From: Pseudomonadota bacterium
GTDB taxonomy: Bacteria > Pseudomonadota > Gammaproteobacteria > Steroidobacterales > Steroidobacteraceae
Assembly (NCBI GenBank): GCA_021816775.1
Contig: JAKAXA010000001.1
Coordinates: forward strand, 79,589 to 143,588
Reading direction: 5' to 3'
DNA length: 64,000 bases
This document shows positions 33,570-50,642 of the stretch, piece by piece. Made by a program: the position numbers and the translations under genes. The notes under the pieces were generated by a model. The model did not search any database. It was not told where the DNA came from and was given only the letters and a program-made list of their open reading frames with translations. How positions within the stretch are numbered: position 1 is the stretch's first letter; each line of letters starts with the position of its first letter.

Positions 33570-33584
33570 GCAACCTCCTTCAGC

Positions 33585-34616
33585 TCAGAGGACGGCTGGC
33601 TGGGATTGTGCCTGATGCGCATCCGGCGCGCCCGGCGGCGGGCCCGCGCTGTGGCGCGGCCTGCGCCGGCGCCCCCCCACCGTGTAGATGGCGGCGGCTG
33701 CGATCAGCACGCTGCCTTCGATCAGGCCCTGATAGTTCGCGCCGAGGTTCAGCACATTGAAGCCATTGGTCAGGGTGTACAGCACCAGCGCGCCGGCGAC
33801 GGTCTTGAGCACGCTGCCGGCGCCGCCGAAGAGCGATGTGCCGCCGAGGATCGCCGCCGCGATCACCGTCAGCTCCTCGCCCTGCAGAGCTGTCGGATTC
33901 ATGGCACCGAACCGCGAGGCGTACAGGACGCCGGCGAAACCTGCCGCCAGGGCCGAGAGCACGAACGCGCCGAGCTTGTAGCCACGCACGTTGATGCCCG
34001 CGAGCCGCGCCGCCTCGGGGCTTCCGCCCGCGGCATAGAGGCGCCGCCCCGCAGTGGTGAAGCGCAGCAGCAGCCAGGCGAGCAGCGTGAAGCCCGCCAT
34101 ATAGAAAATCGGCAGGGGCAGACCCGCGGCGCGCCCGCTCTCGAAGTTCGTCATGGCTTCGAGCGCGGCGGGCGTGCGGACCATCAGCGAGCGGCCGTCG
34201 GTGAGCACCAGCACCAGGCCACGGATCGCGGTGAGCGTGCCCAGCGTCACGATGAAGGCGTTGATGCCGACGAGCTCGACCATCACCCCGTTGAGCACTC
34301 CCACCGCGCCGGCGGTGGCGAGCGAGACGCCCATCGCGGCCCAGAAGCCGACGTGATCGATCACCAGGATGTTGACGGCCGCTGCGAGCGCGGCGACCGA
34401 GGCCACCGAGAGATCGAAGTTGCCCGTGATCAGCACCACGGTCATGGCCACACCCATGATGGCGACCGGCGCGGTCTGATAGAGGATGTTGATGAGGTTG
34501 ACGGGGCTGAGATAGCTCGGCCGGCCGAGCGCAGCGGTGATCACGGTCAGCGCGGCCACCAGCAGCGCCAGCGCGTAGTAGACGCCCGCTTCGCGCAGGC
34601 CCAGCATGCGTCGCAT
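33585..34616 (-). CDS. ribose-type ABC transporter permease
   Basis: 343 residues from the ATG at 34616, which has GGGGGA at a good distance; a GTG at 34637 overlapping the ATPase stop is the alternative. Multiple hydrophobic helices and the RbsC-family signatures GNFDLSVASVAALAA, the NAFIVTLGTLTAIRGLVL run and GGSPEAARLAGINVRGYKL, which includes the ATPase-contact EAA-like loop. Inner-membrane channel of a CUT2 sugar importer. Encoded between the ATPase and the IclR gene. Confidence 0.93.
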   Translation of the reverse strand: MRRMLGLREAGVYYALALLVAALTVITAALGRPSYLSPVNLINILYQTAPVAIMGVAMTVVLITGNFDLSVASVAALAAAVNILVIDHVGFWAAMGVSLATAGAVGVLNGVMVELVGINAFIVTLGTLTAIRGLVLVLTDGRSLMVRTPAALEAMTNFESGRAAGLPLPIFYMAGFTLLAWLLLRFTTAGRRLYAAGGSPEAARLAGINVRGYKLGAFVLSALAAGFAGVLYASRFGAMNPTALQGEELTVIAAAILGGTSLFGGAGSVLKTVAGALVLYTLTNGFNVLNLGANYQGLIEGSVLIAAAAIYTVGGRRRRPRHSAGPPPGAPDAHQAQSQPAVL

Positions 34617-34633
34617 TGATCCCCCCGAACCCC

Positions 34634-36154
34634 TCACTGTAATGTTTCCGGCCGGCGCAGCCCGGCAGCGGCGCCGGCGGCGAGCCGGATCAGCTCTGCC
34701 TCGTCGGTCTGCGCGGCGAGGCGTTCCGCCACGATCGCGCCCTCGCGCATGACGAGGATGCGGTCGGCTTCCTCGAGCAGCACTTTCAACTCGGAGTCGA
34801 CCAGGATGACCGCCACCCCGGAGGCGGCGAGCGCCCGGACCTGATCGAGGATTTCCGCCTTGGCGCCGACGTCGATCCCCGCGGTAGGCTCATCGAGCAG
34901 CAGCAGCCGCGTCGGTCCGCACAGCCAGCGGGCGATGCTCACCTTCTGGGCGTTGCCGCCGGAGAGCTCCCCGACCGGGGCATCGAGGGCGCGCGCCTTG
35001 ATCAGCAGGCGCCTGACGGCTCCGGCGGCGGCCTCGCGCTCGAGCTGCCCCTGCGGGAACACGCCCCAGCGCGAAAAGCGCGCCAGATGCGCGAGCGTTA
35101 TGTTCTGCCACAGCGGCAGGCCGGGCACCAGCGCCTGCGCGGCGCGGTCCTCGGGCACCAAGGCGATCCCGGCGCGCACCGAGGCGCCCGGGGAGCGCGG
35201 CACGGTCCGCCCGAGCAGGCGCACCGCGCCGCGCGCGGCGCGGTCGGCGCCGAAGATCGCATGGAGCAGCTCGCTGCGCCCCGAGCCGAGGAACCCGGCG
35301 ATCCCGAGCACCTCGCCGGCACGCACGCGCAAGGTGCACGGCGCCAGATGGCCGCGCGAGCGCAGTCCGTCGATCTCGGCAACGACCTCGGCGCCGGCAC
35401 GCGCCGCCGCCCTGGCAGTCCGATGAATCGGGCGCCCGGCGATCGCGGCGGCGAGCGCGGCTTCATCGACTGCGGCGGTCTCGGCGCTGATCACTGCGGC
35501 GCCGTCGCGCAACACGGTCAGCGCGTCGGTCAGAGCCAACGCTTCGTCGAGAAAGTGGGTCACGAACAGCACCGCGCGGCCCTCGGCGGCGAGTCGACGG
35601 ATCGCGCGATGCACGAGCTGCCGCTCGGGGGCGGCGAGCGAGGCTGTCGGTTCGTCCATGACGATGAGCTGCGCATCGGCCGCGAGCGCCTGCAGAATGC
35701 CGACCATCTGCCGCTCGCCGATCGCGAGCGCCGCGACCGGCGCCTCGGCGGGCAGGTGATAACCGATCGAGTCCATCAGCCGCGACAGCCGCCAGCGCTC
35801 CTCGCGGCCGCGCCGCCAGTATCCGCGCTGCCCGAGGAATACGTTCTCCCGCACCGACAGCGCCCCGACCAGAGGAATCTGCTGGTGCAGCGTGGCGATG
35901 CCGGCCGCGCGGGCACGTGCCGGATGCGGCCACAGCACTGCCGCGCCACGCCAGCGGATGGTGCCGGTGGTGGCCGGCGTGGCCCCGCAGAGGATGCGGA
36001 TGAGGGTCGACTTGCCCGCGCCGTTGGCGCCGAGCAGGCCGTGCACGGTCCCGGGCCCGACCGACAGATCTACCCCGCGCAGCGCGGCGGTGCCGTTGGG
36101 ATAGATCTTCCCCAGGCGTTCGAGCGATAGCAGCGGTTGGGGGGTGCTCGACAT
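34634..36154 (-). CDS. ribose-type ABC transporter ATPase, two nucleotide-binding domains
   Basis: 506 residues, typical of CUT2 ATPases (RbsA/MglA/XylG). First half: Walker A LLGANGAGKSTL, a degenerate signature LAIGERQM, Walker B QLIVMDEPTASL. Second half: the usual altered Walker A (GFLGSGRSELLHAIFGA), a good signature LSGGNAQKVSIARWL and Walker B LLLLDEPTAGIDVG. Such asymmetry is normal for the family. It energises uptake of a monosaccharide with the adjacent permease and binding protein. Starts 7 nt after the binding protein stop. Confidence 0.95.
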   Translation of the reverse strand: MSSTPQPLLSLERLGKIYPNGTAALRGVDLSVGPGTVHGLLGANGAGKSTLIRILCGATPATTGTIRWRGAAVLWPHPARARAAGIATLHQQIPLVGALSVRENVFLGQRGYWRRGREERWRLSRLMDSIGYHLPAEAPVAALAIGERQMVGILQALAADAQLIVMDEPTASLAAPERQLVHRAIRRLAAEGRAVLFVTHFLDEALALTDALTVLRDGAAVISAETAAVDEAALAAAIAGRPIHRTARAAARAGAEVVAEIDGLRSRGHLAPCTLRVRAGEVLGIAGFLGSGRSELLHAIFGADRAARGAVRLLGRTVPRSPGASVRAGIALVPEDRAAQALVPGLPLWQNITLAHLARFSRWGVFPQGQLEREAAAGAVRRLLIKARALDAPVGELSGGNAQKVSIARWLCGPTRLLLLDEPTAGIDVGAKAEILDQVRALAASGVAVILVDSELKVLLEEADRILVMREGAIVAERLAAQTDEAELIRLAAGAAAGLRRPETLQ

Positions 36155-36161
36155 GAACGGT

Positions 36162-37139
36162 TCACCACTGCGCGCGGCAGTCGCGTACGTTCGCCCGGGT
36201 GATACCGGGCGTTCGGTACGTGATGAACGCCGCGTGCAGGGGTTTCTTGCCCGTTACCTCGCCATAGAGCGCATCGAAAGCGAGCGCGCCGAGCTCGAGC
36301 GGCTTGTAGCACACCGTGCCGTCGATGCGTCCGGCCTCGAGCGAGAGGATGGCCAGGCGCGAACCGCCGATGCCGACCAGTTTCGCGTGCGAACCGGCGG
36401 AGCGCACCGCGCGGGCGCAGCCGACCGCCATGTCGTCGGCCTCGTTGAAGAACAGATCGACGTTGGGATGCGCCTCGAGAATATTCTGACAGGCCACGTC
36501 CGCGTCCTCCGTGCGCCAGTCGCCGGGCTGGGTCGCGACGATCCGGTAGCGAACGTGCGCCGCGCGCAGTCCCTGCTTGAATCCGTCCTCGCGCTGCAGA
36601 ACTTCGGGAAAACCGGGCGCGCCCTGGATGACGGCGATGTGCGCGATGCGGCCCGGCGGCAGCAGCCGGGCCGCCAGCCGGCCGGCCTCGCGGCCGGCGG
36701 CCGTCTCGTCCTGAGTAACCAGGGCGACGAGCTTCGGATAGACCTCGCGCAGCGGCCGCCGGCGCGGATTGCCGACCTGCGAGCCGACCGCCACGACGGG
36801 GATGCCGGCACGCGCCGCGTGGTTCACCCAGCTCTCGGCGATGACCGAATCGAGCGGCATGAGCACAATGCCGTTGACCCGCTCGGCGATCAGGTCCTGC
36901 AGATCGTTTGCCTGTTTCTGCACGCGGTTCTGGGCATCGAGGACGATGGCCTGGACGCCCGCGCGGGCGGCCGCCCGCTGGAAGCCCTTGGCGATGGCCG
37001 CGGCGAACGGATAGCTCAGCCCGGCGCTCGAGAGGCCGAAGCGCAGCGGTGCAGCGGCCGCTGCGCGCGCGAGCAACGCCCCGCACAGGGTCGCCGCAAC
37101 TGCCGTGGCGCGCCGGGTTCTCACCAGCTCGGCCCGCAC
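36162..37139 (-). CDS. ribose-type periplasmic sugar-binding protein
   Basis: 325 residues from a GTG, with a clear Sec signal peptide (1-about 30, ending ARAAAAA). The mature protein follows the RbsB/PF13407 fold: SYPFAAAIAKGFQRAAAR, NDLQDLIAERVNGIVLMPLDS, GIPVVAVGSQV, the ADDMAVG turn and GIGGSRLAILSLEAGRIDGTV. Ligand unknown. D-apiose-binding ABC components described elsewhere belong to this binding-protein family, which fits, but does not prove, an apiose reading of the locus. It follows the MaoC gene by 4 nt. Confidence 0.92.
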   Translation of the reverse strand: MRAELVRTRRATAVAATLCGALLARAAAAAPLRFGLSSAGLSYPFAAAIAKGFQRAAARAGVQAIVLDAQNRVQKQANDLQDLIAERVNGIVLMPLDSVIAESWVNHAARAGIPVVAVGSQVGNPRRRPLREVYPKLVALVTQDETAAGREAGRLAARLLPPGRIAHIAVIQGAPGFPEVLQREDGFKQGLRAAHVRYRIVATQPGDWRTEDADVACQNILEAHPNVDLFFNEADDMAVGCARAVRSAGSHAKLVGIGGSRLAILSLEAGRIDGTVCYKPLELGALAFDALYGEVTGKKPLHAAFITYRTPGITRANVRDCRAQW

Positions 37140-37143
37140 GGTG

Positions 37144-37596
37144 TCATGCCAGTGCCTCGCGCCGCTCGACCAGATACAGGTGGTCGCAGGCGAGGACGGT
37201 CTGACCGTCCTGGTTGGCGATTTCGACCTGCTCCACGATGATGCCGTGGGTTTTGTGCTTGGGATGGTCGCGCCGGCCGCTGATGCGCGCGGTCACCGTG
37301 AGAGTATCGCCGATGAACACCGGGCGGATGAAGCGCACGCGATCATACCCATACGACATCGCTCTCGGGTTGATGGTGTTGGCGGTCATCCCGATGCCGA
37401 TGCTCAGCACCAGCGTGCCATGGGCGATGCGCCGCTTGAAGGGCTGCTGCGCGCACCACTGCGCGTCCATGTGGTGCGGGAAGAAATCCCCGGTCTGGCC
37501 CGCGTGGATCACGATGTCCGCCTCGGTGAGCGTGCGGCCGAACGTGCGCCGCTCGGCGCCGATCTCATAATCCTCGAAGTACTGCTCGACGCTCAT
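37144..37596 (-). CDS. MaoC-like hotdog-fold dehydratase
   Basis: 150 residues from the ATG at 37596, overlapping the CoA-transferase stop by 4 nt (ATGA). Hotdog-fold enoyl-CoA hydratase 2 features: [23 protein letters not shown], the active-site DFFPHHMD region (Asp-x-x-x-x-His as in MaoC/PhaJ) and [10 protein letters not shown]. Members hydrate or dehydrate (R)-3-hydroxyacyl-CoA or related thioesters. The pairing with a family III CoA-transferase suggests a small acyl-CoA module at the head of a sugar uptake operon. Confidence 0.9.
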
Positions 37597-38801: not shown

Positions 38802-38843
38802 CCCGGCTCCTCGCGTATAGTTTGCATATAAATGCTATGTTCG

Positions 38844-38860
38844 TTGACAAACGGTGTCAA
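38844..38860. promoter_or_regulatory. operator-like inverted repeat in the divergent promoter region
   Basis: TTGACA-AACGG-TGTCAA is a perfect 6-bp inverted repeat between the divergent CoA-transferase and solute-binding-like genes; its left arm is also a perfect -35 hexamer. A second AT-rich symmetry, GCAT-ATAA-ATGC (38824-38835), lies just to the left. Both are good candidates for the IclR protein of the operon. Confidence 0.5.
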
Positions 38861-38898
38861 CCCGACGGTCGGGGCCGCCGGACGGACGGGGGTGGGCG

Positions 38899-40035
38899 AT
38901 GCGCAAAGACGGGGCGAACCTGCTGCGGGGCATGACTTGGGATCACCCGCGCGGCTACGGGCCGCTGGCGGCCTGCTCGGCCGCCTGGCTCGAGCGCACC
39001 GGGGTGCGGATCGAGTGGGAGCGGCGCTCGCTGCAGGATTTCGAGTCCTTTCCGGTGGCCGAGCTGGCCGCCCGCTACGACCTGATCATCATCGATCACC
39101 CGCACGTCGGGCAGGTGACGGGCGAGGGCTGCCTGGCGCCGCTCGATGCGGGCCCCGATCCGGACGATGCGGCGCCCGCGGCGGTCGGGGCCTCGCTCTC
39201 GAGCTACCGGTGGGAGGGTCGGCTCTGGGCGCTGCCCATCGATGCGGCGGCACAGGTTCAGGCCTGGCGGCCGGACCGCTTGAGCGCCCCGCCCGCCGAC
39301 TGGCCAGCCACGCTCGAGCTGGCGGCGGACGGCGCGGTACAGTGCCCGCTGCGTCCGCCGCATAATCTGATGGCGCTGTTCACGCTGTGTGGACTGGCCG
39401 GACATCCGGCCCGAGCGAGCGGCGCGGAGCTGTTCGAGCCGGCGGCGGGGTGTGAGGCCTATGAGCGTCTGCTGGAGCTCGCCGCGCGAGTCGATCCGCT
39501 GTGCGGCGAACAGGATCCGATCGCGGTGCTGGAGGGGATGGCGGCGCCGGACTCGCCCACGGTCTGCGTGCCCCTCATCTATGGTTATGTCAGTTATTCC
39601 AAGCGCGGTGCCCGAGGGGCGCGCATCGCATTCGCGGATCTCGCGCCGCTCGCGCGCGGCGGAGCGTGCGCCGGCTCGGCGCTCGGCGGCACCGGCATCG
39701 CCGTTTCGGCGCGCTCCGCCGAGCGCGCCGCCGCGATCGCCTTCGCCCGCTGGGTCGCGGGCCGCGAGGCGCAGTGTGGAGCGTATCTCGCCGGCGGCGG
39801 CCAGCCGGCGCACCGGGCCGCCTGGGACGATCCGACCGCCAATGACGAGTCGCTCGGGTTCTACCGCAACACGCGCGCGACGCTCGAGGGCGCCTGGGTG
39901 CGCCCGCGTCACGCCGGCTACATGAGCTTCCAGGACGCCGCCGCGCGGCGCCTGCGGGCGGCGGTCGGCGCGCGGGAGCCGGCCGCCGCAGTGATCCGGG
40001 CGCTCAATCGACTGTATCGCGAGGTATCACCATGA
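38899..40035 (+). CDS. solute-binding-protein-like protein without signal peptide (second type)
   Basis: 378 residues from the ATG at 38899, preceded by a GGGGG site; a GTG 45 nt upstream is possible but would also give no signal peptide. It starts LRGMTWDHPRGYGPLAACSAAW, has DLIIIDHPHVGQV and YRWEGRLWALPIDAAAQVQAWRPD, then GTGIAVSARSAERAAAIAFARWVAG near the C-terminal third, the layout of a sugar-binding family 1 protein. There is no export signal and no matching permease. It is first in the operon with the GH127-type enzyme, RuBisCO-like protein and kinase, overlapping the next gene by 4 nt. Likely cytoplasmic role unknown. Confidence 0.8.
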   Translation: MRKDGANLLRGMTWDHPRGYGPLAACSAAWLERTGVRIEWERRSLQDFESFPVAELAARYDLIIIDHPHVGQVTGEGCLAPLDAGPDPDDAAPAAVGASLSSYRWEGRLWALPIDAAAQVQAWRPDRLSAPPADWPATLELAADGAVQCPLRPPHNLMALFTLCGLAGHPARASGAELFEPAAGCEAYERLLELAARVDPLCGEQDPIAVLEGMAAPDSPTVCVPLIYGYVSYSKRGARGARIAFADLAPLARGGACAGSALGGTGIAVSARSAERAAAIAFARWVAGREAQCGAYLAGGGQPAHRAAWDDPTANDESLGFYRNTRATLEGAWVRPRHAGYMSFQDAAARRLRAAVGAREPAAAVIRALNRLYREVSP

Positions 40036-41867
40036 ACCGACCCAGCTCACGCCGCGCATTTCTCCAATCGGCCGCGACGGCCGCCGGACTCGGGATCATC
40101 GGCGGCCGCGCTCGGTGGGCCCGCGCGCGCGCGCCGGCGGCGCGCGATGCCGCACCGGGCTCGGCCGTCGAGCGTCTGCGCGAGTTCGACTACGGCGATG
40201 TCGCCCTGACCGGCGGACCGCTGAAGGCGCAGTACGACTTCATTCACGCGCATTACCTGGCGCTCGACAACGACCGGCTGCTGCAGGTGTACCGCGAGCA
40301 CGCCGGCCTGCGCGCGCCCGGCATCGACATGGGCGGATGGTACGGCGCCGGGGGCTTCATTCCGGGTCACGCCTTCGGTCAGTACGTCTCGGGCATTGCG
40401 CGCTTCGGGCGCTGTACCGGCGATGCGGCGTGCCGCGCGAAAGTGCACGAGCTGATACGCGGCTTCGGCAAGGCGCTCGATGCCAACCCGGTTCCCTACG
40501 CCGGCGAGGGCGCCTGGAAGATGTGGCCGGCCTACGTGCTCGACAAGCACATGATCGGGCTGATCGATGCCTACCGGCTGAGCGGCATGCACCCGGCGCG
40601 CGGGCTGATTCCACGGGTGATCCGCGGCGCACTGCCGTTCGTCTCGCCGGTCAGCCGCGATCGGCTCGGCGTGAGGACCCCTCCCTACGACGAAACCTAC
40701 ATCGTCTCGGAGAACCTGTTCACCGCGGCGCAGCTGACCGGCGAGCGCAGCGTGCGCGATCTGGCGGTGAAATACCTGCTCGACAAACCGTATTTCGACC
40801 CGCTCGCGCGCGGCGAGAACGTGCTCGCCGGCCGTCAGGCCTACAGTCATGTCATGGCGCTGAGTTCGGCGGCCAAGGCCTATATCGAGCTCGGCGAACC
40901 GCGCTATCGGGACGCGATCGTCAACGGCTGGAGGTTCCTCGACGAGCAGAGCTACGCGACCGGCGGCTGGGGGCCGAGCGAGCTGCTGATCGCGCCCGGG
41001 AGCGGCGCGCTCTACTCGAGCCTGACCCAAACCGCGGATCACTTCGAGACGCCGTGCGGGACGTACGCGACCATGAAGCTCGCCCGCTATCTGCTGCGCT
41101 TCACGGGCGATGCGCGCTACGGCGACGGGCTCGAGCGGATCATGTGGAACGGGCTGCTCGCGGTCCGCCCGCCGGACTCCAACGGCAACTCGCCGTATTA
41201 TTCGAGCTACAACCCGGACGCGAAGAAAGTCTTTTATCCGCAGAAGTGGCCGTGCTGCTCCGGCACGCTGGTCCAGGGCGTGGCGGACTACGTGCGCAAC
41301 GTCTATTTTCATGCGCCCGGCTCGCTCTACGTAAACCTGTTTACGCCCTCGCGGGTCCGCTGGCGCACCGGCGGTCGGGCGGTGACCCTCACGCAACAGA
41401 CCGATTATCCGGCTGGCGAGTCGGTGACGCTGCACGTCGCGACCGCCGCGCCAGCGGCGTTCGCACTCCTGATCCGCGTCCCCGGCTGGCTGGGCACCGA
41501 GCCCGAGATCCGTGTCAACGGCCGGCGCGTGTCCGTGGCAGCCGGGCCGGGCACGTTTGCCGCGCTCAGGCGCACGTGGCGCGACGGCGACCGCGTGGAG
41601 CTGCACCTGCCCCAGGCGCTGCGCACACAGCCCGTCGACCGCTCCCATCCCGACACCGTCGCCCTGCTGCGCGGCCCGCTCGTCTACAGCGCGCTCAACT
41701 TCGCCGGCCCCGGCACACCCGTGCCGCGGCTCGAGGTGGCCGGGATCACGCCGGTCACGGGCATGGCCGAGACCTACCGGCAGATGGAGCGCGGACAGCA
41801 GATCCTCTTCGTGCCGTTCTACAAGGTTCTCAACGAGTCCTACAATGTCTACTTCCAGAGGGCCTGA
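40032..41867 (+). CDS. GH127-type (DUF1680) glycoside hydrolase with Tat-like signal
   Basis: 611 residues. A twin-arginine-like leader (SRRAFLQ at 6-12, then a hydrophobic run) suggests folded export. The (alpha/alpha)6 barrel of DUF1680/GH127 is shown by GGWYGAGGFIPGHAFGQYVSG, a HVMALSSAAKAYIELGE region, and the active-site set Glu339, Cys342, Cys408, Cys409 (FETPCGTY and KWPCCSGT). In characterised GH127 beta-L-arabinofuranosidase the zinc-thiolate set is Glu-x-Cys plus Cys-Cys; here Glu and Cys are separated by one more residue. Probable removal of L-arabinofuranose or a related sugar from plant glycans. Confidence 0.85.
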   Translation: MNRPSSRRAFLQSAATAAGLGIIGGRARWARARAPAARDAAPGSAVERLREFDYGDVALTGGPLKAQYDFIHAHYLALDNDRLLQVYREHAGLRAPGIDMGGWYGAGGFIPGHAFGQYVSGIARFGRCTGDAACRAKVHELIRGFGKALDANPVPYAGEGAWKMWPAYVLDKHMIGLIDAYRLSGMHPARGLIPRVIRGALPFVSPVSRDRLGVRTPPYDETYIVSENLFTAAQLTGERSVRDLAVKYLLDKPYFDPLARGENVLAGRQAYSHVMALSSAAKAYIELGEPRYRDAIVNGWRFLDEQSYATGGWGPSELLIAPGSGALYSSLTQTADHFETPCGTYATMKLARYLLRFTGDARYGDGLERIMWNGLLAVRPPDSNGNSPYYSSYNPDAKKVFYPQKWPCCSGTLVQGVADYVRNVYFHAPGSLYVNLFTPSRVRWRTGGRAVTLTQQTDYPAGESVTLHVATAAPAAFALLIRVPGWLGTEPEIRVNGRRVSVAAGPGTFAALRRTWRDGDRVELHLPQALRTQPVDRSHPDTVALLRGPLVYSALNFAGPGTPVPRLEVAGITPVTGMAETYRQMERGQQILFVPFYKVLNESYNVYFQRA

Positions 41868-43131
41868 GGCCGCACGCGTCGTCGCGCGCTACTGGATCGA
41901 GACCGCCCGCCCGCTGCAGGAGGCCGCCGCGACGATGGCCGGCGAACAGTCGACCGGCACGTTCGTGCGGGTCGCCGGAGAGACCGATGCGCTGCGTCAG
42001 CGCTTCGCCGCCCGCGTCGAGACGCTGACGCCCACCGGCGAGACCAACGCGCCGTCGCTTCCCGGGGCCTGGCAGCCGCGCGGCGGGGCGGCCGTGTGGC
42101 GCACCGCGGAGGTCACGCTCTCCTGGCCGCTGCATAACTTCGGACCGTCGCTGCCGAACCTGCTCGCCACCGTGGCGGGGAATCTGTGGGAGCTGAACGC
42201 GTTCTCGGGAATGCGATTGCTCGAGCTGGCGCTGCCGGCGGAGTTTCTCTCGGTGTACCCGGGTCCGCAGTTCGGCGTAGCCGGCACACGCGCCGTGAGC
42301 GGCGTGCACGGCCGACCGCTCATCGGCACGATCATCAAGCCGAGCGTCGGCCTCTCGCCGGACGCTACCGCGGCGCGGGTCGCCGAGCTCGCCGCCGCCG
42401 GCGTGGATTTCATCAAGGACGACGAGCTGCAGGCGGACGGCCCTCACTGTCCGTTCGAGGCCCGCTTCAGCGCAGTGATGCGTGTGCTGCGCGAGCACGC
42501 AGAGCGCACCGGGCACCGGGTCCTCTATGCGGTCAACATCACCGGCGAGATCGATCAGATGCTGCGCCGCCACGAGCGCGTCGTGTCCGAGGGCGGCAAC
42601 TGCGTCATGGTGAGCCTGCACAGCATCGGCCTGCCGGCGCTCACCGCGCTGCGCGCGCACTGTCAGGTGCCGATCCACGGGCACCGCAACGGTTGGGGCC
42701 TGCTCGGGCGCTCGCCGGCAATCGGCGTGAGCTTCCCGGCCTGGCAGAAGCTGTGGCGGCTCGCGGGCATCGACCACGTGCACGTCAACGGGCTCGACAA
42801 CAAGTTCTGCGAGAGCAACGAGTCGGTGATTGCCTCCGCGCGCGAGTGTCTCACGCCGATGTTCCCGCCGCCGGCGCGCGGTTGCGAAATCATGCCGGTG
42901 TTTTCCTCCGGTCAGACGGCGCTGCAGGTGCCGGGCACGTGGCAGGCGCTCGGCACGGTGGATCTCATTCACGCCTGCGGCGGCGGGGTCATCGGCCATC
43001 CCGGCGGCGCGGCCGCCGGCGTGCGCAGCCTGCGCCAGGCGTGGGAGGCGGCCGTCGCCGGCATCCCGCTCGGAGAATATGCCCGCGAGCACCGGGAGCT
43101 CGCCGACGCGATCGCGACCTTCGGCCGCTGA
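41845..43131 (+). CDS. RuBisCO-like protein (form IV), OiaX-like candidate
   Basis: 428 residues from the ATG at 41845, inside the end of the GH127-type gene (23-nt overlap). RuBisCO large-chain features: GTIIKPSVGLSP (Lys165, equivalent to the proton-shuttling lysine), the carbamylation and metal motif FIKDDE (Lys191, Asp193, Glu194), IHGHRNGWG (278 on), a loop-6-like VNGLDNKF with Lys320, VFSSGQ and GGGVIGHPGG for phosphate binding. Not a CO2-fixing enzyme by context: no small subunit, phosphoribulokinase or Calvin genes. With a DUF1537 kinase downstream it matches the 3-oxo-isoapionate-4-phosphate decarboxylase arrangement of D-apiose catabolism. Confidence 0.85.
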   Translation: MSTSRGPEAARVVARYWIETARPLQEAAATMAGEQSTGTFVRVAGETDALRQRFAARVETLTPTGETNAPSLPGAWQPRGGAAVWRTAEVTLSWPLHNFGPSLPNLLATVAGNLWELNAFSGMRLLELALPAEFLSVYPGPQFGVAGTRAVSGVHGRPLIGTIIKPSVGLSPDATAARVAELAAAGVDFIKDDELQADGPHCPFEARFSAVMRVLREHAERTGHRVLYAVNITGEIDQMLRRHERVVSEGGNCVMVSLHSIGLPALTALRAHCQVPIHGHRNGWGLLGRSPAIGVSFPAWQKLWRLAGIDHVHVNGLDNKFCESNESVIASARECLTPMFPPPARGCEIMPVFSSGQTALQVPGTWQALGTVDLIHACGGGVIGHPGGAAAGVRSLRQAWEAAVAGIPLGEYAREHRELADAIATFGR

Positions 43132-43139
43132 GGGGCATC

Positions 43140-44453
43140 ATGTCCTCTCCTCTGTATGCGTATTACGGCGATGACTTCACCGGCTCGACCGACGTGCTCG
43201 AGGTGCTGGCGTCGGCCGGCGTGCGCAGCGTGCTGTTCATCGGGCCGCCGAGCGCGATGCGCGAGCGGGGCTTTTCGGACTGTCAGGCCTTCGGCATCGC
43301 GGGCGACAGCCGCAGCCGCACCCCGCAGTGGATGAGCGAGCATCTGCCGGCGCTGTTTGCGCGGCTGGGCGAATTCGGTGCGCCGATCGCTCACTACAAG
43401 ACCTGCTCCACTTTCGACAGCTCGCCGCGGCTAGGCTCGATCGGCCGCGCACTCGAGATCGGCCGCGACACATGGGCGGGGCCTTTCATTCCGATCGTGG
43501 TCGCCGCACCGCACCTCGGCCGCTACGTGGCCTTCGGCAATCTGTTCGCAGCCGCCGGCGGCGTCGTGCACCGCATCGACCGCCATCCGAGCATGCGCGC
43601 CCACCCGGTAACGCCCATGCACGAGGCGGATCTGCGCCGCCACCTGGCCGCGCAGACCACCATGCGCGTCGGATTGGTCGCGCTGCCGACGCTGGCGCGC
43701 AATGCTGCCGCTGAGGCGCTGGCCGATTGCCAGAGCGCGGGCGAGGAGGCCGTGCTGTTCGATGGGGTCAGCGAGGCGGACCTCGCGCAGACCGGGCGAG
43801 TGCTGTGGCGTGCCGCCGAGCGCCACGCGCTGTTTTGCGCCGGCAGTTCCGGGCTGCCGTACGCTCTGCTCACGCCGTGGCGTGAGGCCGGGCTCATACC
43901 GGAGCGCTTCGAGCCGCCGCGGCACAGCAAGCCCGTGGACACGTTGCTGGTCATCAGCGGCAGCTGCTCACCGGTGACCGAGCGGCAGATTCACTCCGCG
44001 CTGCGTGCCGGCTATCACGGCATTGCGCTCGATCCGAAGGTGCTCCTCAGCGAAGCGCACGGTCCCCAGACAGGTGAGCGATTGGTACAGCAGGCGGTTT
44101 GCAATCTGCGCGCGGGCCGCAGCACCATCGTATACAGCGCTCTCGGACCCCTGGGCGCGGGCATATCCGCCTCGGGTGAGGCGCTCGGAAGATGCCTGGG
44201 CGATCTGCTCTCGCGCATCCTCGCCCAAGCGCCCGTGCCCCGCGTGTTGCTCGCCGGCGGCGACACCTCGAGCCACGCCGTCTCCCGGCTCGGTCTACAG
44301 GCTCTCACATGGCTTGCGAGTCTGGAGCCGGGCGCGCCGCTGTGCCGTGCCCACACCGACACGCAGAGCGGCCTCGACGGCTTGGAGCTGGTGCTCAAGG
44401 GCGGTCAGGTCGGGAGCGAGGCGTTCTTCGAACGCGTCCGGCTCGGGCGCTAG
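43140..44453 (+). CDS. DUF1537 four-carbon/branched acid sugar kinase, OiaK-like candidate
   Basis: 437 residues from the ATG at 43140, 8 nt after the RuBisCO-like gene. The family opening YAYYGDDFTGSTDVLEVLASAG carries the sugar-acid binding DDFTGS motif. A middle STFDSSPRLGSIGRALEI, the LLVISGSCSPVTERQI hinge and LLAGGDTSSHAV plus LVLKGGQVGSEAFF nucleotide-binding segments complete the OtnK fold. Family members phosphorylate erythronate, threonate, or 3-oxo-isoapionate (OiaK). Adjacency to a RuBisCO-like protein favours the last. Final gene of the four-gene rightward operon. Confidence 0.88.
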   Translation: MSSPLYAYYGDDFTGSTDVLEVLASAGVRSVLFIGPPSAMRERGFSDCQAFGIAGDSRSRTPQWMSEHLPALFARLGEFGAPIAHYKTCSTFDSSPRLGSIGRALEIGRDTWAGPFIPIVVAAPHLGRYVAFGNLFAAAGGVVHRIDRHPSMRAHPVTPMHEADLRRHLAAQTTMRVGLVALPTLARNAAAEALADCQSAGEEAVLFDGVSEADLAQTGRVLWRAAERHALFCAGSSGLPYALLTPWREAGLIPERFEPPRHSKPVDTLLVISGSCSPVTERQIHSALRAGYHGIALDPKVLLSEAHGPQTGERLVQQAVCNLRAGRSTIVYSALGPLGAGISASGEALGRCLGDLLSRILAQAPVPRVLLAGGDTSSHAVSRLGLQALTWLASLEPGAPLCRAHTDTQSGLDGLELVLKGGQVGSEAFFERVRLGR

Positions 44454-45425: not shown

Positions 45426-46697
45426 CTAGCCCGGCGCGGCTTCCTCGAGCGCCTCGGGCTCAACTGCCAGCCCCGCCGTGCAATCGACGCGCGAGAATAC
45501 GATGGCCGCGACCAGCACCATCAGCGCCACCGCCTGCACGGGCAGTTCATAGTTGCCCGTGGCGCCGACGATATAGCCAAATGCAAGGGTGCACAGCACC
45601 CCGCCAGCCTGGCCCGCCGTGTTCATCACTCCGGTGGCCGCCCCGCCGTGATTGCCGCCGATGCTCATGCACATCGCCCAGGCTGCCGGCAGCATCAGAT
45701 CCATGGTCGCGAATCCGGCGGTGGCCAGGACCACGATCGCGATGCGGCCGGTGACGAGGCTCATGGCGAGCAGCAGCCCCGCGCCCACGATCAGGCAGCC
45801 GGCGGTCATCAGGCGCGTGGCGCTGCGCAGGCCGATCCTCAGTCCCAACCGGTCGCACACCGTCCCGCCGATGAGGTTGCTGCCGATGCCGAGCAGAAAC
45901 GGAAAGGCCGCATACACGCCCATTTGCCGCAGCGTGAAGTGCCCGGCGTGCACCATCCAGGTCGGAAACCAGTTGAAGTAAAACCAGCTGCCGGCGCCGT
46001 AACAGCCGTAGGCAAGCACGATGAGCCACAGCTGCGGCAGCCTCAGCAGGCGGCCGAGGGCGCCCCTGCCGCCGTGCGCATCGCCGTGGCGCTCGCCGAT
46101 TTCAGCAAGTTCCTCGGGACGAATGCCCGGCTGCTCGGCCGGACGGTCGTGATACCACAGCCACCAGGCCAGCGCCCATGCCGCGCCGATGACGGCCAAC
46201 ACCCAGAACACCGCTCGCCAGCCGAAGTGAATCGCGAGCGGCACCAGCAGCAGCGGTGCGAGCGCCCCGCCGAGACGGCTCGCCGCCCACACCGCACCCT
46301 GCCCGCGCGCCCGCTCGCGCGCCGGCAGCCAGCGCCACAGCACGCCGGAGGCGTTTGGATACGCCCCCGCCGAGCCGATGCCGAAGCAGAAGCGCACGAT
46401 GGCGAGTGGAATGAAGCGCGTGCACGCGCCGGTGAGCGCGGTGAAACCTGACCACCAGGCGGCGATGCGTGAGAGCTCGCGCCGCTGACCGTGACGATCG
46501 CCGAGAGCGCCGGATGGGATCTCGAACAAACCGTAGGCGATCACGTAGGCGCTGAGCACCCAGCCCCACTGCTCGGGGGTGAGCCCGAGGTCGTGCTGAA
46601 TGCTCGGACCCAGCACCGAGATGGCCATCCGGTCGAGGAAGGTGATGACCGAGACGACGCTCAGCAGCCCGACGACAGCATAGCGTTTCTTGAGCAT
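45426..46697 (-). CDS. MFS transporter, anion:cation symporter (ACS) type
   Basis: 423 residues, twelve hydrophobic helices. ACS-family marks (ExuT, GudP, DgoT): helix 1 VVSVITFLDRMAISVLGPSI, the signature loop FEIPSGALGDRHGQR, FGIGSAGAYPNASGVL, WLPARERARGQGAVWAASRL and a helix-7 GSWFYFNWFPTWMV. These carriers import hexuronates, aldarates and other sugar acids with protons. It is the last gene of the nine-gene rhamnose operon, starting at the base next to the racemase stop; a pectin-derived uronate or aldonate is a likely substrate. Confidence 0.9.
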   Translation of the reverse strand: MLKKRYAVVGLLSVVSVITFLDRMAISVLGPSIQHDLGLTPEQWGWVLSAYVIAYGLFEIPSGALGDRHGQRRELSRIAAWWSGFTALTGACTRFIPLAIVRFCFGIGSAGAYPNASGVLWRWLPARERARGQGAVWAASRLGGALAPLLLVPLAIHFGWRAVFWVLAVIGAAWALAWWLWYHDRPAEQPGIRPEELAEIGERHGDAHGGRGALGRLLRLPQLWLIVLAYGCYGAGSWFYFNWFPTWMVHAGHFTLRQMGVYAAFPFLLGIGSNLIGGTVCDRLGLRIGLRSATRLMTAGCLIVGAGLLLAMSLVTGRIAIVVLATAGFATMDLMLPAAWAMCMSIGGNHGGAATGVMNTAGQAGGVLCTLAFGYIVGATGNYELPVQAVALMVLVAAIVFSRVDCTAGLAVEPEALEEAAPG

Positions 46698-47372
46698 TCA
46701 GCCGGCCTCGAGGCCGAACACCTCGCGCACCTGACGCACGCCGGACTCGGGGCTCGACAGCACCGGCGCCTTGACGGCGCCCGCCGGCAGGGCCGCCACG
46801 ACCCGGGCCATGGACGCCTGCGCCAACACGATGACATCAACATCGCGCATCTTTTCGGTCAGCGCCGCGCTCACGAGGCGGTCGTGCGTGGCGGTATCGC
46901 CCGCGAGCACCGCCGCAAATGCGCCCTCGCACAGACACTCGACTACATCGATCGTGCGTCCTGCTTCAAGCGCAGCGGTCCGTACCAGGGCCGACGTGGG
47001 CTCGAGCGTCGTGCGAAGCGTAGCAAGGACTCCGATCCGCCGACCCTGCCGCACCGCGGCGCGCGCCATAGGCGCATCGACCCGCAGCACGGGCGGGTCG
47101 TACAGCTGCCGGGCAATGTCCACGGCCGGACCAATGGACGAGCAGGTCACCAGCACGCCGTCCGCGCCGGCCTCGAGCGCGGATCCGACCAGCGTGGCGA
47201 GCCGGCGCACGGTGGTCTTCTCCAGCCGCCCGGCCTGTATCGTGTTCTTGATCAGACTCTCATCGACGGTGTGGAAGATCTGCACCTCCGGCAGCCATTG
47301 CGCGCACAGGGATGCGAACAGAGGCGTCAAGACCGGCGAGGTGTGCAACAGGGCGAGCTTGCGATGCGGCAT
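46698..47372 (-). CDS. Asp/Glu racemase-superfamily protein
   Basis: 224 residues. Both catalytic Cys positions of the superfamily are considered: VLVTCSSIGPAVD has one clear Cys, but the second half reads VLAQASMARV where racemases have a Cys-containing motif, so two-base racemase chemistry is doubtful. GVLATLRTTLEPTSALV is the usual mid-region. Relatives include hydantoin racemase, maleate isomerase and decarboxylases using a single Cys. Encoded one base after the GH78 gene and directly before the ACS carrier in the rhamnose operon; its substrate there is unknown. Confidence 0.82.
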   Translation of the reverse strand: MPHRKLALLHTSPVLTPLFASLCAQWLPEVQIFHTVDESLIKNTIQAGRLEKTTVRRLATLVGSALEAGADGVLVTCSSIGPAVDIARQLYDPPVLRVDAPMARAAVRQGRRIGVLATLRTTLEPTSALVRTAALEAGRTIDVVECLCEGAFAAVLAGDTATHDRLVSAALTEKMRDVDVIVLAQASMARVVAALPAGAVKAPVLSSPESGVRQVREVFGLEAG

Positions 47373-47373
47373 G

Positions 47374-50300
47374 TCAGTCTCTCGTCAAGTCATAGGTTCC
47401 CGAGCCCAACTCGGCGGTGAAGGCGGCGGACCCCGGCGTCACGGGGCCGAGCGCGACCGCTCGCAGCGGCCCGCCGTCGGCGCGCCACTCGGCCGGCCGG
47501 CCCGGCAGATGCACCTCGGCGCGGCTGTTCGCCGGTACGCGCACCTGCAGCCGCGCGAGGCCACGCGGACCTCCCTCGAGCTCCGTCGAGATCGGACCGA
47601 GGCACGAGGCGTAGTGGGCGCGCACGCGCGGAATGCGCGCATCGAAGATCGGGTCGATCTTGATGCGCCGGAAGCCGGGCGCGGCCTCGTCGATGCCGCC
47701 GACGCGCCGGTACATGAACCCGACCACCGCGCCGAGCGCGTAATGATTGAAGGAGTTCATGGACTGATCGACCGCATTGCCGTTCCAGCGCTCCCACATC
47801 GTGGTCGCGCCGTGATCGATCATGTAGCCCCAGGACGGGTATTTCGTCTGCAGCAGCAGCGTGATCGCGAGGCGCTGCTGACCGGTGTCGGCGAGCGCAT
47901 CGAGCAGGCAGGGGGTGCCGAGAAAACCCGTGGACAGCAGGTTGCCGCGGGCCTCGACATTCGCGGCGAGCCGCGCCCCGGCGCGCGTGCGCAGCGCCCC
48001 CGGCACCAGTCCGAAGCGCAGCGAGAGCGCGTAGCTGGTCTGACTGCCGTTGCCGACGGTACCGTCCGCGCGGACGAATTCCCGCGCGAAAGCCTGTTCG
48101 ATGCCCCGGCGCATCCGCGCATAGCGCTGCGCCTGCTCAGCGTGACCGATGGCCGCGGCCATCTCGGCCATCAAGACCGCGCAGCGTGCCCAATAGGCCG
48201 TCGCCACGAGCGTCTTCGGCGTCGTTGCCTCGGCGGGATTCGGCGCGACATCAGGGTTGGTGGAGACCACCGACAGCCAGTCGCCCAGATCGAGGCCGCG
48301 ACGCTGCCGCCAGATGAAGTCCGGATTGGCCGCGGCCACGTAATCGACCCAGCGTTGCATGTGGATCCAGTTCTGTTCGATCACGGCGGTGTCGCCGTAG
48401 CGCCGATACAGCGTCCAGGGCAGGATCACGCCCGCATCGCTCCACCCGGCGGTCACCAGCTCGGGAAAGGAGCGCGGCTGGGGCGTGACGATGGGAAAGG
48501 CGCCATCGGGCGTTTGACCGGCGCGCACCTCGCCCAGGAAGCGGCGGATGAACGCGTCGACGTCCATGTTGAACGTTGCGGCGTCCAGGAACACCTGGAT
48601 ATCGCCCATCCAGCCCATGCGCTCGTCGCGCTGCGGGCAGTCGGTCGGCACGCCGAAGAAGTTCGAGCGCTGGCTCCACAGGGCGTTGTGCCAGATCTGC
48701 TGCGCGATCGGCTGCTCGAGCTCGAGCGCGCCGCTCTCGGCGGCATCGGTATGCGCCACCACGCCTTCGAGGGACTCGCGGGTAGGCACGCCGGGATAGC
48801 CGGTGATCTCCACGTAACGAAAGCCGTGATAGGTGAAATGCGGCTCGTAGATCTCGCCGTGCGGATCGCCGCGCAGCGTGTAGTGGTCCGTGGCACGCGC
48901 CGCACGCAGGTTCGATGTGTTGATGTTGCCGTCGAGGTAGAGGATCTCCGCGTGCCGCAGGCGCACCCTCGCGCCGGCCGGCCCCATCACGCGCAGCCGG
49001 CACCAGCCGGCGAAGTTCTGTCCGAAGTCGCATACGTAGACGCCCGGCCTTGGCTGCGTGATCGTGCGCACCGCCAGAGTCTCCACGGCGCGGATGGGCG
49101 GATCGACCTGCGCCACGAGCCGCTCGCGCGGCCGGGCGCCGATCGCGGCGGTCTGCCATGCGGACGCGTCGTAGCCCGGCCGATCCCAACCGGGCCGCTC
49201 CCGCCGCGCGTCGTAATCCTCGCCGTTGTAGATCTCCGACGAGAGGATCATCGAGTCGGCCAGCCGCCAGGTCGAGTCCGTGACGATGACATCACGGCTA
49301 CCGTCGGTGTACTCGAGGACCAGCTGCGCGAGAAAACGACGCGGACTGCCGGCGAGGGAATAACGCTCGTTCGTCCAACTGAATGCGGAGGCATACCAGC
49401 CGTCGCCGATCAACGCGCCGAGCGCGTTGCGGCCGGGATGCACCTGATCGCTGGCGTCGTAGCATTGATACAACACGCGGTCGCTGGCCACGGTGATTTC
49501 CGGCGACAGCCGGGCCGTACCCAGCCGCCCGCCGTTGAGGTACGGCTCATAGGCACCGAGAGCCGTCGCGTAGAGTCTGGCGCGCGCCAGTGGCTTGACG
49601 ACGTCGAATTCGCGGCGCGCGAACACCGCCGGGCGCGGCGGGCGCGGATCGCACGAGGGGGCGGTGGCGGCGGGACGCGCGCGTGGCCAGTCGCTGTCAT
49701 CGAAGCCTGGCTGGGTCCAGCCCGCCGGTGCCGTGCGCGAGGCTCGCCAAGCCGGTCCGCTCGGGAAACGGCCGATCGTTCCATCGCTGTGCCACACCTT
49801 CACCATCGCGGCGAGCGCACCGCCCGTCCCTGGCATGAAGGTGCCCGGATCGGCACGGCCGCTCACGGCTATGACGTGCGCGCCGGGGGTCGCCGGCAGC
49901 ACGATGCGCTGCATCGTCCCCCAGGGCCGCTCGGCGGGCAACGAGACCGGCTGACCGTCGATCCACACCCCGAGCAGGTCGTCCTTGGCGGATAACCATA
50001 GCTGCGCCTGACGCACGCCCGCGGGCAAGGTGAACCGATGGCGGAACTGTTGCGGTTCAGGCGCGAGCGCCGACGCGTCGCTCCAGATCCAGTGAATGCC
50101 GACCGCGCGGTCAGCGCGCTCGTGCGGGTCCTCGATGTCCAGCCATTCGGCCTGCCAGTCGGATGGCTGCAGCAGCCCCATCTCGAACCAGGCGGGCTCG
50201 CTGGGTGCCGATGGACGGTCGTCGCTGTCCCACACCTGCACCCGCCACCACACGCGCTGCGCAGAATGAAGCGTCCTGCCTTCGTAGAGCACCTCGAAGC

Positions 50301-50631
50301 AGCGGTCCGAGCGCACAACACCGCTGTCCCAGAGGTCCGCCCCGCCCGCCTCGAGTCGTTCGCGGGTCGAGGCGGCCGTGATGCGATAGGCGCCCTGCAG
50401 CACGCCGCGCGCACGGCTCGCGAGCTCCCAGGACAGGCGCGGCTGCGCGACCTCGAGGCCGAGCGGCTGCTCGCTGCGCTCCGCGCGCAGGCGCATCGCC
50501 CGGACCACCTCGGCACGCGGGGGGGCGGCATCTGCCTCGGCACCGCGCGCGCTCGAGGGCCTCAGCAGCGCCGGTGCGGCCGCGAGCAAACCCGTGCCGA
50601 GCAGCGCGCGGCGGCGGCTGATCCTGGCCAT
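47374..50631 (-). CDS. GH78 alpha-L-rhamnosidase
   Basis: 1085 residues from the ATG at 50631. A Tat-like leader (SRRRALL near 5-11, hydrophobic run to 22) is followed by GH78 modules: an Ig-like N-terminal domain (LRAERSEQPLGLEVAQPRLSW), lectin-like beta domains, YVCDFGQNFAGWCRLRVMGP, and the (alpha/alpha)6 catalytic domain with the signature DCPQRDERMGWMGD (general acid Glu) and GATTMWERWNG. It releases L-rhamnose from pectin side chains, flavonoids or glycolipids. Eleven nt after the SGNH esterase and one nt before the racemase-like gene, in an operon that then oxidises rhamnose. Confidence 0.94.
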   Translation of the reverse strand: MARISRRRALLGTGLLAAAPALLRPSSARGAEADAAPPRAEVVRAMRLRAERSEQPLGLEVAQPRLSWELASRARGVLQGAYRITAASTRERLEAGGADLWDSGVVRSDRCFEVLYEGRTLHSAQRVWWRVQVWDSDDRPSAPSEPAWFEMGLLQPSDWQAEWLDIEDPHERADRAVGIHWIWSDASALAPEPQQFRHRFTLPAGVRQAQLWLSAKDDLLGVWIDGQPVSLPAERPWGTMQRIVLPATPGAHVIAVSGRADPGTFMPGTGGALAAMVKVWHSDGTIGRFPSGPAWRASRTAPAGWTQPGFDDSDWPRARPAATAPSCDPRPPRPAVFARREFDVVKPLARARLYATALGAYEPYLNGGRLGTARLSPEITVASDRVLYQCYDASDQVHPGRNALGALIGDGWYASAFSWTNERYSLAGSPRRFLAQLVLEYTDGSRDVIVTDSTWRLADSMILSSEIYNGEDYDARRERPGWDRPGYDASAWQTAAIGARPRERLVAQVDPPIRAVETLAVRTITQPRPGVYVCDFGQNFAGWCRLRVMGPAGARVRLRHAEILYLDGNINTSNLRAARATDHYTLRGDPHGEIYEPHFTYHGFRYVEITGYPGVPTRESLEGVVAHTDAAESGALELEQPIAQQIWHNALWSQRSNFFGVPTDCPQRDERMGWMGDIQVFLDAATFNMDVDAFIRRFLGEVRAGQTPDGAFPIVTPQPRSFPELVTAGWSDAGVILPWTLYRRYGDTAVIEQNWIHMQRWVDYVAAANPDFIWRQRRGLDLGDWLSVVSTNPDVAPNPAEATTPKTLVATAYWARCAVLMAEMAAAIGHAEQAQRYARMRRGIEQAFAREFVRADGTVGNGSQTSYALSLRFGLVPGALRTRAGARLAANVEARGNLLSTGFLGTPCLLDALADTGQQRLAITLLLQTKYPSWGYMIDHGATTMWERWNGNAVDQSMNSFNHYALGAVVGFMYRRVGGIDEAAPGFRRIKIDPIFDARIPRVRAHYASCLGPISTELEGGPRGLARLQVRVPANSRAEVHLPGRPAEWRADGGPLRAVALGPVTPGSAAFTAELGSGTYDLTRD

Positions 50632-50642
50632 GACCGGATGCC

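What the first reader, a model, noticed from the sequence alone, without database searches (positions are those of the whole stretch)
41845..44453. RuBisCO-like protein plus DUF1537 kinase: candidate D-apiose branch
The RuBisCO-like protein keeps the carbamylation/metal motif KDDE and the lysines of the active site, yet sits with a DUF1537 kinase, a glycosidase, a ribose-type ABC importer and a Gfo/Idh oxidoreductase instead of Calvin-cycle genes. In the known oxidative D-apiose route a Gfo/Idh enzyme oxidises apiose, OiaK (DUF1537) phosphorylates 3-oxo-isoapionate and OiaX (RuBisCO-like) decarboxylates it. The neighbouring rhamnose genes fit, because apiose and rhamnose adjoin in rhamnogalacturonan II. 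The lactonase and oxidoisomerase of that route are not recognisable here, so a variant pathway is possible.
Basis: partly seen in the sequence, partly recalled or inferred. Interest (0 to 1): 0.82.

Follow-up and report, generated by a model that had tools for sequence, protein, structure and literature searches.

The report
Probable aceric acid breakdown gene module

Summary
The two genes are real and correctly placed: RuBisCO-like protein (RLP) 41845-43131 and DUF1537 kinase 43140-44453. Their best named families are OiaX and OiaK, but both miss the curated cut-offs (443 and 467 bits against 700), and the tree puts the RLP outside the OiaX clade. The apiose reading is not supported: no match to the apionate oxidoisomerase family in the genome, and the Gfo/Idh and ribose-type binding proteins are only 22-26% identical to those of apiose operons.

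What travels with RLP and kinase is an Asp/Glu-racemase-fold protein with one invariant cysteine (window 46698-47372). In 201 genomes sampled from the order of one relative, RLP and this protein occur in the same 24, always within 3 kb, and all 24 are among the 73 with an aceric acid hydrolase. In three of these and in a Chloroflexi genome the hydrolase lies directly beside the RLP. Many relatives also carry a transketolase set that I read as a separate apiose route.

Best reading: aceric acid from rhamnogalacturonan II is isomerised to a ketose, phosphorylated, then decarboxylated or split by the RLP. No activity is shown, and the window's own glycosidase is not the hydrolase ortholog.

The parts
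41845..43131 (+). RuBisCO-like protein of the OiaX/OiaT kin; proposed to decarboxylate (or transcarboxylate and split) a branched 3-oxo-acid phosphate
43140..44453 (+). DUF1537 kinase of the OiaK kin; proposed to phosphorylate the CH2OH next to the keto group
46698..47372 (-). Asp/Glu-racemase-fold protein with one invariant cysteine (ASP); proposed aldose-ketose (carbonyl-shift) isomerase
45426..46697 (-). MFS transporter, best match the D-galactonate transporter subfamily (215.6 bits, below its cut-off of 395); proposed importer of the sugar acid
   Evidence: a relative is seen in 22 of 26 window-clade loci
40032..41867 (+). GH127-type glycosidase with a twin-arginine-like leader (by eye) and conserved E339/C342/C408/C409; substrate open (not the aceric acid hydrolase ortholog)
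38899..40035 (+). solute-binding-protein-like gene without an obvious signal peptide by eye (SBPa), overlaps GH127 by 4 nt; belongs to a second conserved module
47374..50766 (-). GH78 alpha-L-rhamnosidase ORF, one base from the ASP gene (true start not settled)
33585..37139 (-). ribose-type ABC importer (RbsC, RbsA, RbsB); its RbsB is not close to that of apiose operons
30507..31577 (-). Gfo/Idh oxidoreductase; 22-26% identical to the Gfo/Idh of apiose-type loci; belongs to the second module

Best explanation
RLP, kinase and ASP form a catabolic module for aceric acid (3-C-carboxy-5-deoxy-L-xylose) freed from rhamnogalacturonan II. Proposed steps, all inferred: the free acid enters by a transporter (an MFS protein here, a sodium/bile-acid-type protein in several relatives); ASP shifts the carbonyl from C1 to C2, giving 3-C-carboxy-5-deoxy-pentulose; the DUF1537 kinase phosphorylates O1; the RLP acts on the resulting beta-keto acid with its tertiary hydroxyl, which is 3-oxo-isoapionate 4-phosphate with CH(OH)CH3 in place of CH2OH. 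An OiaX-like outcome is CO2 plus 5-deoxypentulose 1-phosphate, which a class II aldolase could split to DHAP and acetaldehyde. An OiaT-like outcome is 3-phosphoglycerate plus lactate. For the window clade I lean to the latter, because I saw no downstream sugar-phosphate enzyme that is constant in these loci. Shown: the genes, their families, and their co-occurrence and linkage. Inferred: substrate, isomerase role and products.
For: (1) In the DNA held for 81 RLP loci, ASP is seen in 33, ApnO in 14, both only in L015. (2) In 201 genomes sampled from the order of Olivibacter, RLP and ASP occur in the same 24, always within 3 kb, and all 24 are among 73 genomes over the aceric acid hydrolase cut-off (hypergeometric 1.6e-12, not corrected for kinship). 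(3) The hydrolase lies directly upstream of RLP in a Chloroflexi genome (over the cut-off) and three genomes of that order, and a near relative (748 bits, cut-off 950) in Desertihabitans; near-cut-off copies lie within 7 kb in two Opitutales and Bythopirellula and one of 779 bits about 20 kb away in Planctobacterium. (4) A split transketolase, part of a set that I read as a known apiose route, matches in 25 of 37 window-type genomes against 4 of 14 others at E 1e-40 (p 0.025), or 25 against 1 if only split copies of 223 bits or more count, a limit set after seeing the list (p 1.2e-4); it is on the RLP contig within 42 kb in 16. (5) No ApnO match in 28 of 31 window-type genomes. (6) Best transporter matches are of carboxylate types, though below their cut-offs. 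(7) ASP homologs in loci without an RLP match have OtnK-OtnC within 3.2 kb in 3 of 10 loci looked at. (8) Aceric acid fits the OiaK/OiaX substrate frame without any oxidation (chemistry from general knowledge).
Against: No activity is shown. The window GH127 is not the hydrolase ortholog (93 bits against 950), the own genome has no better match (93.6 bits), and its nearest solved relative is 5OPJ (153 bits; recalled as the GH146 beta-L-arabinofuranosidase BT0349), ahead of 5MQO (78 bits; recalled as BT1003). GH127 membership alone does not fix the substrate (passage in PMC5698469). 49 of the 73 hydrolase genomes of the order, and the control Bacteroides ihuae, lack the RLP. In the 51-genome set the hydrolase excess (7 of 37 against 0 of 14 at 748 bits or more, a limit set after seeing the list) is not significant (p 0.17). 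In Olivibacter the hydrolase stands in one cluster with a different conserved module (CaiB, MaoC, Gfo/Idh, two SBPs) and not with the RLP. RLPs with ASP are not one clade (4-6 changes). In L117 an OtnK 8.5 kb from ASP has its own OtnI beside it, so ASP need not be its isomerase. The own genome has no split-transketolase match either, so its apiose route, if any, is unknown. Desertihabitans has ABC-type transporter genes rather than the MFS or bile-acid type beside the module.
Confidence: 0.6

Rival explanations
1. A variant D-apiose route: the RLP and kinase still act on 3-oxo-isoapionate and its 4-phosphate, with ASP or another protein replacing ApsD, ApnL and ApnO.
For: Best family hits are OiaX and OiaK; the kinase is 49% identical to the kinase of a canonical apiose operon; in the tree the window clade neighbours ApnO-linked RLPs of Acidobacteriota; the own genome shows neither the split transketolase nor ApnO.
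Against: Many relatives of the same clade carry a transketolase set beside the module; no ApnO match in 28 of 31; Gfo/Idh and RbsB are remote; all carriers in the order-wide sample have aceric acid hydrolase.
Confidence: 0.15
2. The module serves another sugar acid from plant cell walls or soil (e.g. a tetruronate-like or other branched 3-oxo acid), and the hydrolase link reflects shared life on pectin.
For: ASP homologs also stand near OtnK-OtnC; further RLP-kinase groups with TRAP, SDR or KDG-permease neighbours suggest that this enzyme pair serves several substrates; 49 of 73 hydrolase genomes lack the module.
Against: All 24 carriers in a sample of 201 have the hydrolase, and it is the immediate neighbour of RLP in Bacteroidota and a Chloroflexi genome; I know of no other RG-II sugar that gives this beta-keto acid frame.
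Confidence: 0.2
3. The second module (SBPa, CaiB, SBPb, Gfo/Idh, MaoC) breaks down aceric acid through CoA esters, and RLP-kinase-ASP does something else.
For: In Olivibacter it shares a cluster with the hydrolase; in the window SBPa overlaps the GH127 of the RLP operon.
Against: Of the 7 genomes with a hydrolase-type match of 748 bits or more, RLP is on the same contig in 6 and MaoC in 1; Bythopirellula, one Opitutales genome and Planctobacterium have hydrolase-type gene and RLP but no MaoC match at 1e-20. MaoC was not searched in the order-wide sample.
Confidence: 0.05

Closest known systems
OiaX / OiaK branch of oxidative D-apiose catabolism (Carter et al. 2018, recalled; not held; one passage citing it seen in PMC6302742; canonical operon seen as L098)
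   Same: RLP next to DUF1537 kinase; same catalytic residues kept; same expected chemistry on a 3-oxo acid with tertiary hydroxyl
   Different: below both cut-offs, separate clade, no ApnO match, no TIM/RpiB pair in the loci; Gfo/Idh and RbsB remote; ASP, MFS and GH127 instead
OiaT-type RLP (transcarboxylase/hydrolase; the passage in PMC6302742 names RLPs of Agrobacterium radiobacter and Xanthobacter autotrophicus for decarboxylation and transcarboxylation/hydrolysis)
   Same: window RLP is 61% identical to the RLP of an ApnO and ApnL-like locus of a Xanthobacteraceae genome (L025), which I take as OiaT-like without a reference sequence
   Different: ASP instead of ApnO/ApnL in the window clade
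OtnK-OtnC (3-oxo-tetronate kinase and decarboxylase)
   Same: DUF1537 kinase followed by decarboxylation; ASP homologs stand near it on some plasmids
   Different: decarboxylase is of the class II aldolase family, not an RLP
Asp/Glu racemase superfamily
   Different: the place where racemases carry their second catalytic cysteine (motif recalled) reads LAQASM, so not a standard two-base racemase

Membership tests
OiaX (NF042437) | score over the curated cut-off of 700 bits | tested here: not met
   443 bits
OiaX (NF042437) | place inside the clade of named OiaX proteins | tested here: not met
   5 named OiaX form their own 100/100 clade; window lies in another 26-row clade (100/98)
OiaX (NF042437) | decarboxylates 3-oxo-isoapionate 4-phosphate | not testable with these tools
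   needs enzyme assay
OiaK (NF042436) | score over the curated cut-off of 700 bits | tested here: not met
   467 bits; next best 3-oxo-tetronate kinase 200 bits
oxidative D-apiose pathway | ApnO oxidoisomerase encoded (PGDH_C family) | tested here: not met
   0 matches in the own draft genome of 97% completeness; positive control G023 rings
oxidative D-apiose pathway | ApsD-like Gfo/Idh and apiose-type RbsB | tested here: not met
   22-26% and 23-25% identity to three apiose-type loci
DK-MTP-1-P enolase (MtnW) | cut-offs of the two MtnW models | tested here: not met
   164 and 203 bits against 514 and 409
aceric acid hydrolase (NF049879), window GH127 | score over the curated cut-off of 950 bits | tested here: not met
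   93 bits; a relative beside RLP reaches 998
Asp/Glu racemase | superfamily fold and domain | tested here: met
Asp/Glu racemase | two catalytic cysteines | tested here: not met
   Cys77 is the only invariant cysteine in 21 aligned ASP proteins; the second-cysteine motif, placed from memory, reads LAQASM or alike

The most novel reading that the evidence does not exclude
A catabolic pathway for aceric acid, spread from Bacteroidota and Planctomycetota to Acidobacteriota and a haloarchaeon, in which a racemase-fold protein with a single catalytic cysteine acts as an aldose-ketose isomerase and a RuBisCO-like protein carries out the key carbon-carbon bond cleavage.
Probability: 0.55. Interest if true: 0.85.

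Novelty: new variant of a known kind. Interest (0 to 1): 0.72.

Why it matters
Aceric acid is a sugar of rhamnogalacturonan II, one of the most complex plant polysaccharides. I found no description of how any microbe breaks down the free sugar, but that rests on capped listings of five searches of one open-access library and on passages of a few papers; most subscription journals are not covered. If right, this gives a new substrate for the RuBisCO-like/DUF1537 pair, a new reaction type for the Asp/Glu racemase fold, and three genes that can be assayed directly. It also warns that genomes called apiose users from RLP and DUF1537 kinase alone may be wrongly labelled.

Tried and rejected
Position 279 of the RLP (Gly in 36 of 38 ASP-type rows, Ala in 5 of 5 OiaX) looked like a specificity mark but is also Gly in 6 of 17 ApnO rows and 23 of 33 other rows: dropped. 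The first two automatic gene calls broke up high-GC genes; replaced. The tree was affected by a distant RuBisCO that attracted long rows; repeated with MtnW. A tblastn query for the own aldolase was out of frame and gave nothing usable. Class II aldolases occur in 30 of 31 window-type genomes but also in 12 of 14 control genomes, so their presence says little; the own one (L104 5883-6596) overlaps a gene that I read as MtnA (IF-2B domain). (ApnO, 0 of 201) rang nowhere and by itself does not show absence; the same family does ring. The structure of GH127 could not be predicted.

Rows left out: L001 and L002 (own genome) from the count; L001, L002, L029, L065, L082 from the tree; L002 and L082; 30 of 80 loci from the genome sets; 6 of 37 window-type genomes. 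The 37 'window-type' genomes (own one included) contain four in which ASP was not seen (L006, L016, L018 near contig ends, L045). Of 163 plasmid records with an ASP match, 12 places were opened, two of them (L083, L091) on plasmids that also carry the RLP. Near copies were not removed before the Fisher and hypergeometric tests.
Full report
Observation. The RLP (41845-43131, 428 aa) and the DUF1537 kinase (43140-44453, 437 aa) are intact genes with both domains each. They follow a solute-binding-like gene and a GH127-type glycosidase with overlaps of 4 and 23 nt, so they look like one operon. The KDDE motif and the lysines align with the organism's ordinary RuBisCO, which sits on another contig.

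Family. NCBIfam puts OiaX first for the RLP (443 bits, cut-off 700) and OiaK first for the kinase (467 bits, cut-off 700). None of the 50 genomes tested, the own one included, reaches the OiaX cut-off: best RLP per genome 387-528 bits. Five PGAP-named OiaX proteins from plasmids are 42-46% identical to the window RLP. In a 92-row tree rooted with MtnW they form their own clade (100/100), while the window RLP lies in a 26-row clade (100/98) of Pseudomonadota, Sphingomonadales among them, and Acidobacteriota.

Apiose test. A canonical OiaX operon (L098) holds NanR, OiaX, kinase, a triose-phosphate-isomerase/RpiB pair, a PGDH_C protein (ApnO), an RbsB-DUF2291-RbsA-RbsC importer, Gfo/Idh and a further gene that I take for ApnL. 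In the own genome no ApnO-family match is found; of 31 window-type genomes searched, the own one included, 3 have one (G007, G013, G040), and the control G023 rings. The window Gfo/Idh and RbsB are 22-26% and 23-25% identical to those of three apiose-type loci. The TIM and RpiB proteins of L098 find no match in any other locus held at that time. So the apiose reading is not supported, although RbsABC and Gfo/Idh beside the RLP made it a fair guess.

What travels with this RLP. In the DNA held for 81 RLP loci (80 fetched, plus the window), an Asp/Glu-racemase-family gene (ASP) is seen in 33, ApnO in 14, both only in L015. A GH127 match is seen in 25 of the 37 loci of the ASP kind and in 1 of the other 44, L023 (the ASP kind includes four loci where ASP itself was not seen). 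The ASP kind spans Pseudomonadota, Acidobacteriota, Chloroflexota, Planctomycetota, Verrucomicrobiota, Bacteroidota, Bacillota, Actinomycetota and a haloarchaeon, and these RLPs are not one clade, so the pairing was made or kept more than once.

Order-wide test. In 201 genomes drawn evenly from the order of Olivibacter (L052), the RLP is in 24 and ASP in the same 24, each time within 3 kb. An aceric acid hydrolase over its cut-off is in 73, and all 24 are among them (hypergeometric 1.6e-12; 4.5e-12 without the seed genome; not corrected for kinship). In 12 of the 24 the two lie within 100 kb, and in 3 (G067, G185, G192) they are neighbours. The other 49 hydrolase genomes have no such RLP. The split transketolase is in 15 of 201 at E 1e-90, of which 12 carry the RLP.

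Hydrolase beside RLP elsewhere. A GH127 gene over the aceric acid hydrolase cut-off of 950 lies directly upstream of RLP in a Chloroflexi genome (998 bits). Genes just or well below it lie directly upstream in Desertihabitans (748), within 7 kb in two Opitutales (899, 894) and in Bythopirellula (943), and about 20 kb away in Planctobacterium (779), a member of the window clade. Olivibacter has one (1196) on another contig than its RLP. None of the 14 genomes without ASP has a match above 430 bits, but 7 of 37 against 0 of 14 is not significant by itself (p 0.17).

A separate apiose route beside it. Several of these loci carry an isomerase, split transketolase halves and an FGGY kinase. I read this set as the transketolase route for apiose; that is recalled and not confirmed by any search (one search found no paper with 'apulose'). 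Counting only split copies of 223 bits or more, a limit set after seeing the list, it is 25 against 1 (p 1.2e-4); two of the 25 have a stop inside the match. It is on the RLP contig within 42 kb in 16: 11 by the places by matching contig coordinates with GH127 places. The own genome and its closest relatives show none. Where apiose has its own route in the same cluster, the RLP module should serve something else.

Why aceric acid. From general knowledge, aceric acid is 3-C-carboxy-5-deoxy-L-xylose. PMC5698469 (passage) names BT1003 as its hydrolase in RG-II breakdown, and also warns that GH127 relatives can have other substrates. PMC12168206 and PMC6353982 (passages) list it among RG-II sugars. 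Moving its carbonyl from C1 to C2 gives 3-oxo-isoapionate with CH(OH)CH3 in place of CH2OH, so the OiaK and OiaX/OiaT steps can follow with no oxidation. The transporters beside ASP have their best matches among carboxylate carriers: a D-galactonate-type MFS here (216 bits, cut-off 395), a PanS/bile-acid-type protein in Olivibacter (218 bits, cut-off 400) with relatives in L009, Opitutales, Bythopirellula and Rufibacter. Neither reaches a curated cut-off, and Desertihabitans has ABC-type transporter genes instead.

Products. An OiaX-like RLP would give CO2 and 5-deoxypentulose 1-phosphate; class II aldolases stand 3 and 6 kb from the RLP in Bythopirellula and Natronoglomus, and the own genome has one beside an MtnA-like gene on another contig. 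An OiaT-like RLP would give 3-phosphoglycerate and lactate. The window RLP is closer to RLPs of ApnO loci such as L025 (61%) than to OiaX (42-46%), and I saw no constant downstream enzyme, so I lean to the OiaT-like outcome for the window clade.

Limits. The window's own GH127 is not the hydrolase ortholog; its closest solved relative is 5OPJ, so what it frees is open. A second conserved module (SBPa, CaiB, SBPb, Gfo/Idh, MaoC) shares the window cluster and also a cluster with the hydrolase in Olivibacter; its role is unknown. Co-occurrence shows association, not chemistry.

Literature. Five searches on aceric acid in one open-access library listed no described route for the free sugar; the lists were capped and I saw titles and starts of abstracts, plus passages of PMC10850190, PMC12168206, PMC5698469, PMC6353982 and PMC7939467. 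The key apiose paper is not held; I saw only a passage citing it (PMC6302742).

Noticed in passing
window 30507-40035 (SBPa, CaiB, MaoC, SBPb, Gfo/Idh); L108-L113: A second module of SBPa, CaiB, SBPb, Gfo/Idh and MaoC (all five or most of them) is kept together in Chloroflexi, Opitutales, Desertihabitans, Paenibacillus, Olivibacter and Acidobacteria genomes and in the window; the two solute-binding-like proteins show no obvious signal peptide by eye. In Olivibacter it shares a cluster with the aceric acid hydrolase and a rhamnosidase-like gene.
   Followed up: partly
L034, L038-L040, L046-L047, L087, L088, L103 and many of L053-L082 (Variovorax, Bordetella and kin): Further RLP-kinase groups have TRAP, KDG-permease or SDR neighbours; they probably act on other sugar acids.
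   Followed up: no
L086, L092, L095: ASP homologs stand within 3.2 kb of OtnK and OtnC, which might point to another way to make 3-oxo-tetronate.
   Followed up: partly
L048 7541-9265, L045 8148-9872, L037 7476-9209: A 574-577 aa protein beside the module in Paenibacillus; the L048 copy has no NCBIfam match at 1e-5 and no Pfam match at 0.01, the L045 copy no Pfam match at 1e-5.
   Followed up: no
G000 contig C83 67470-68393: The organism has a second, ordinary RuBisCO (451 bits), so it may fix CO2.
   Followed up: no
L104 4801-6596: An MtnA-like gene and a fuculose-phosphate-aldolase-like gene overlap by 4 nt in the own genome, as in a 5'-deoxyadenosine/methylthioadenosine salvage route.
   Followed up: partly
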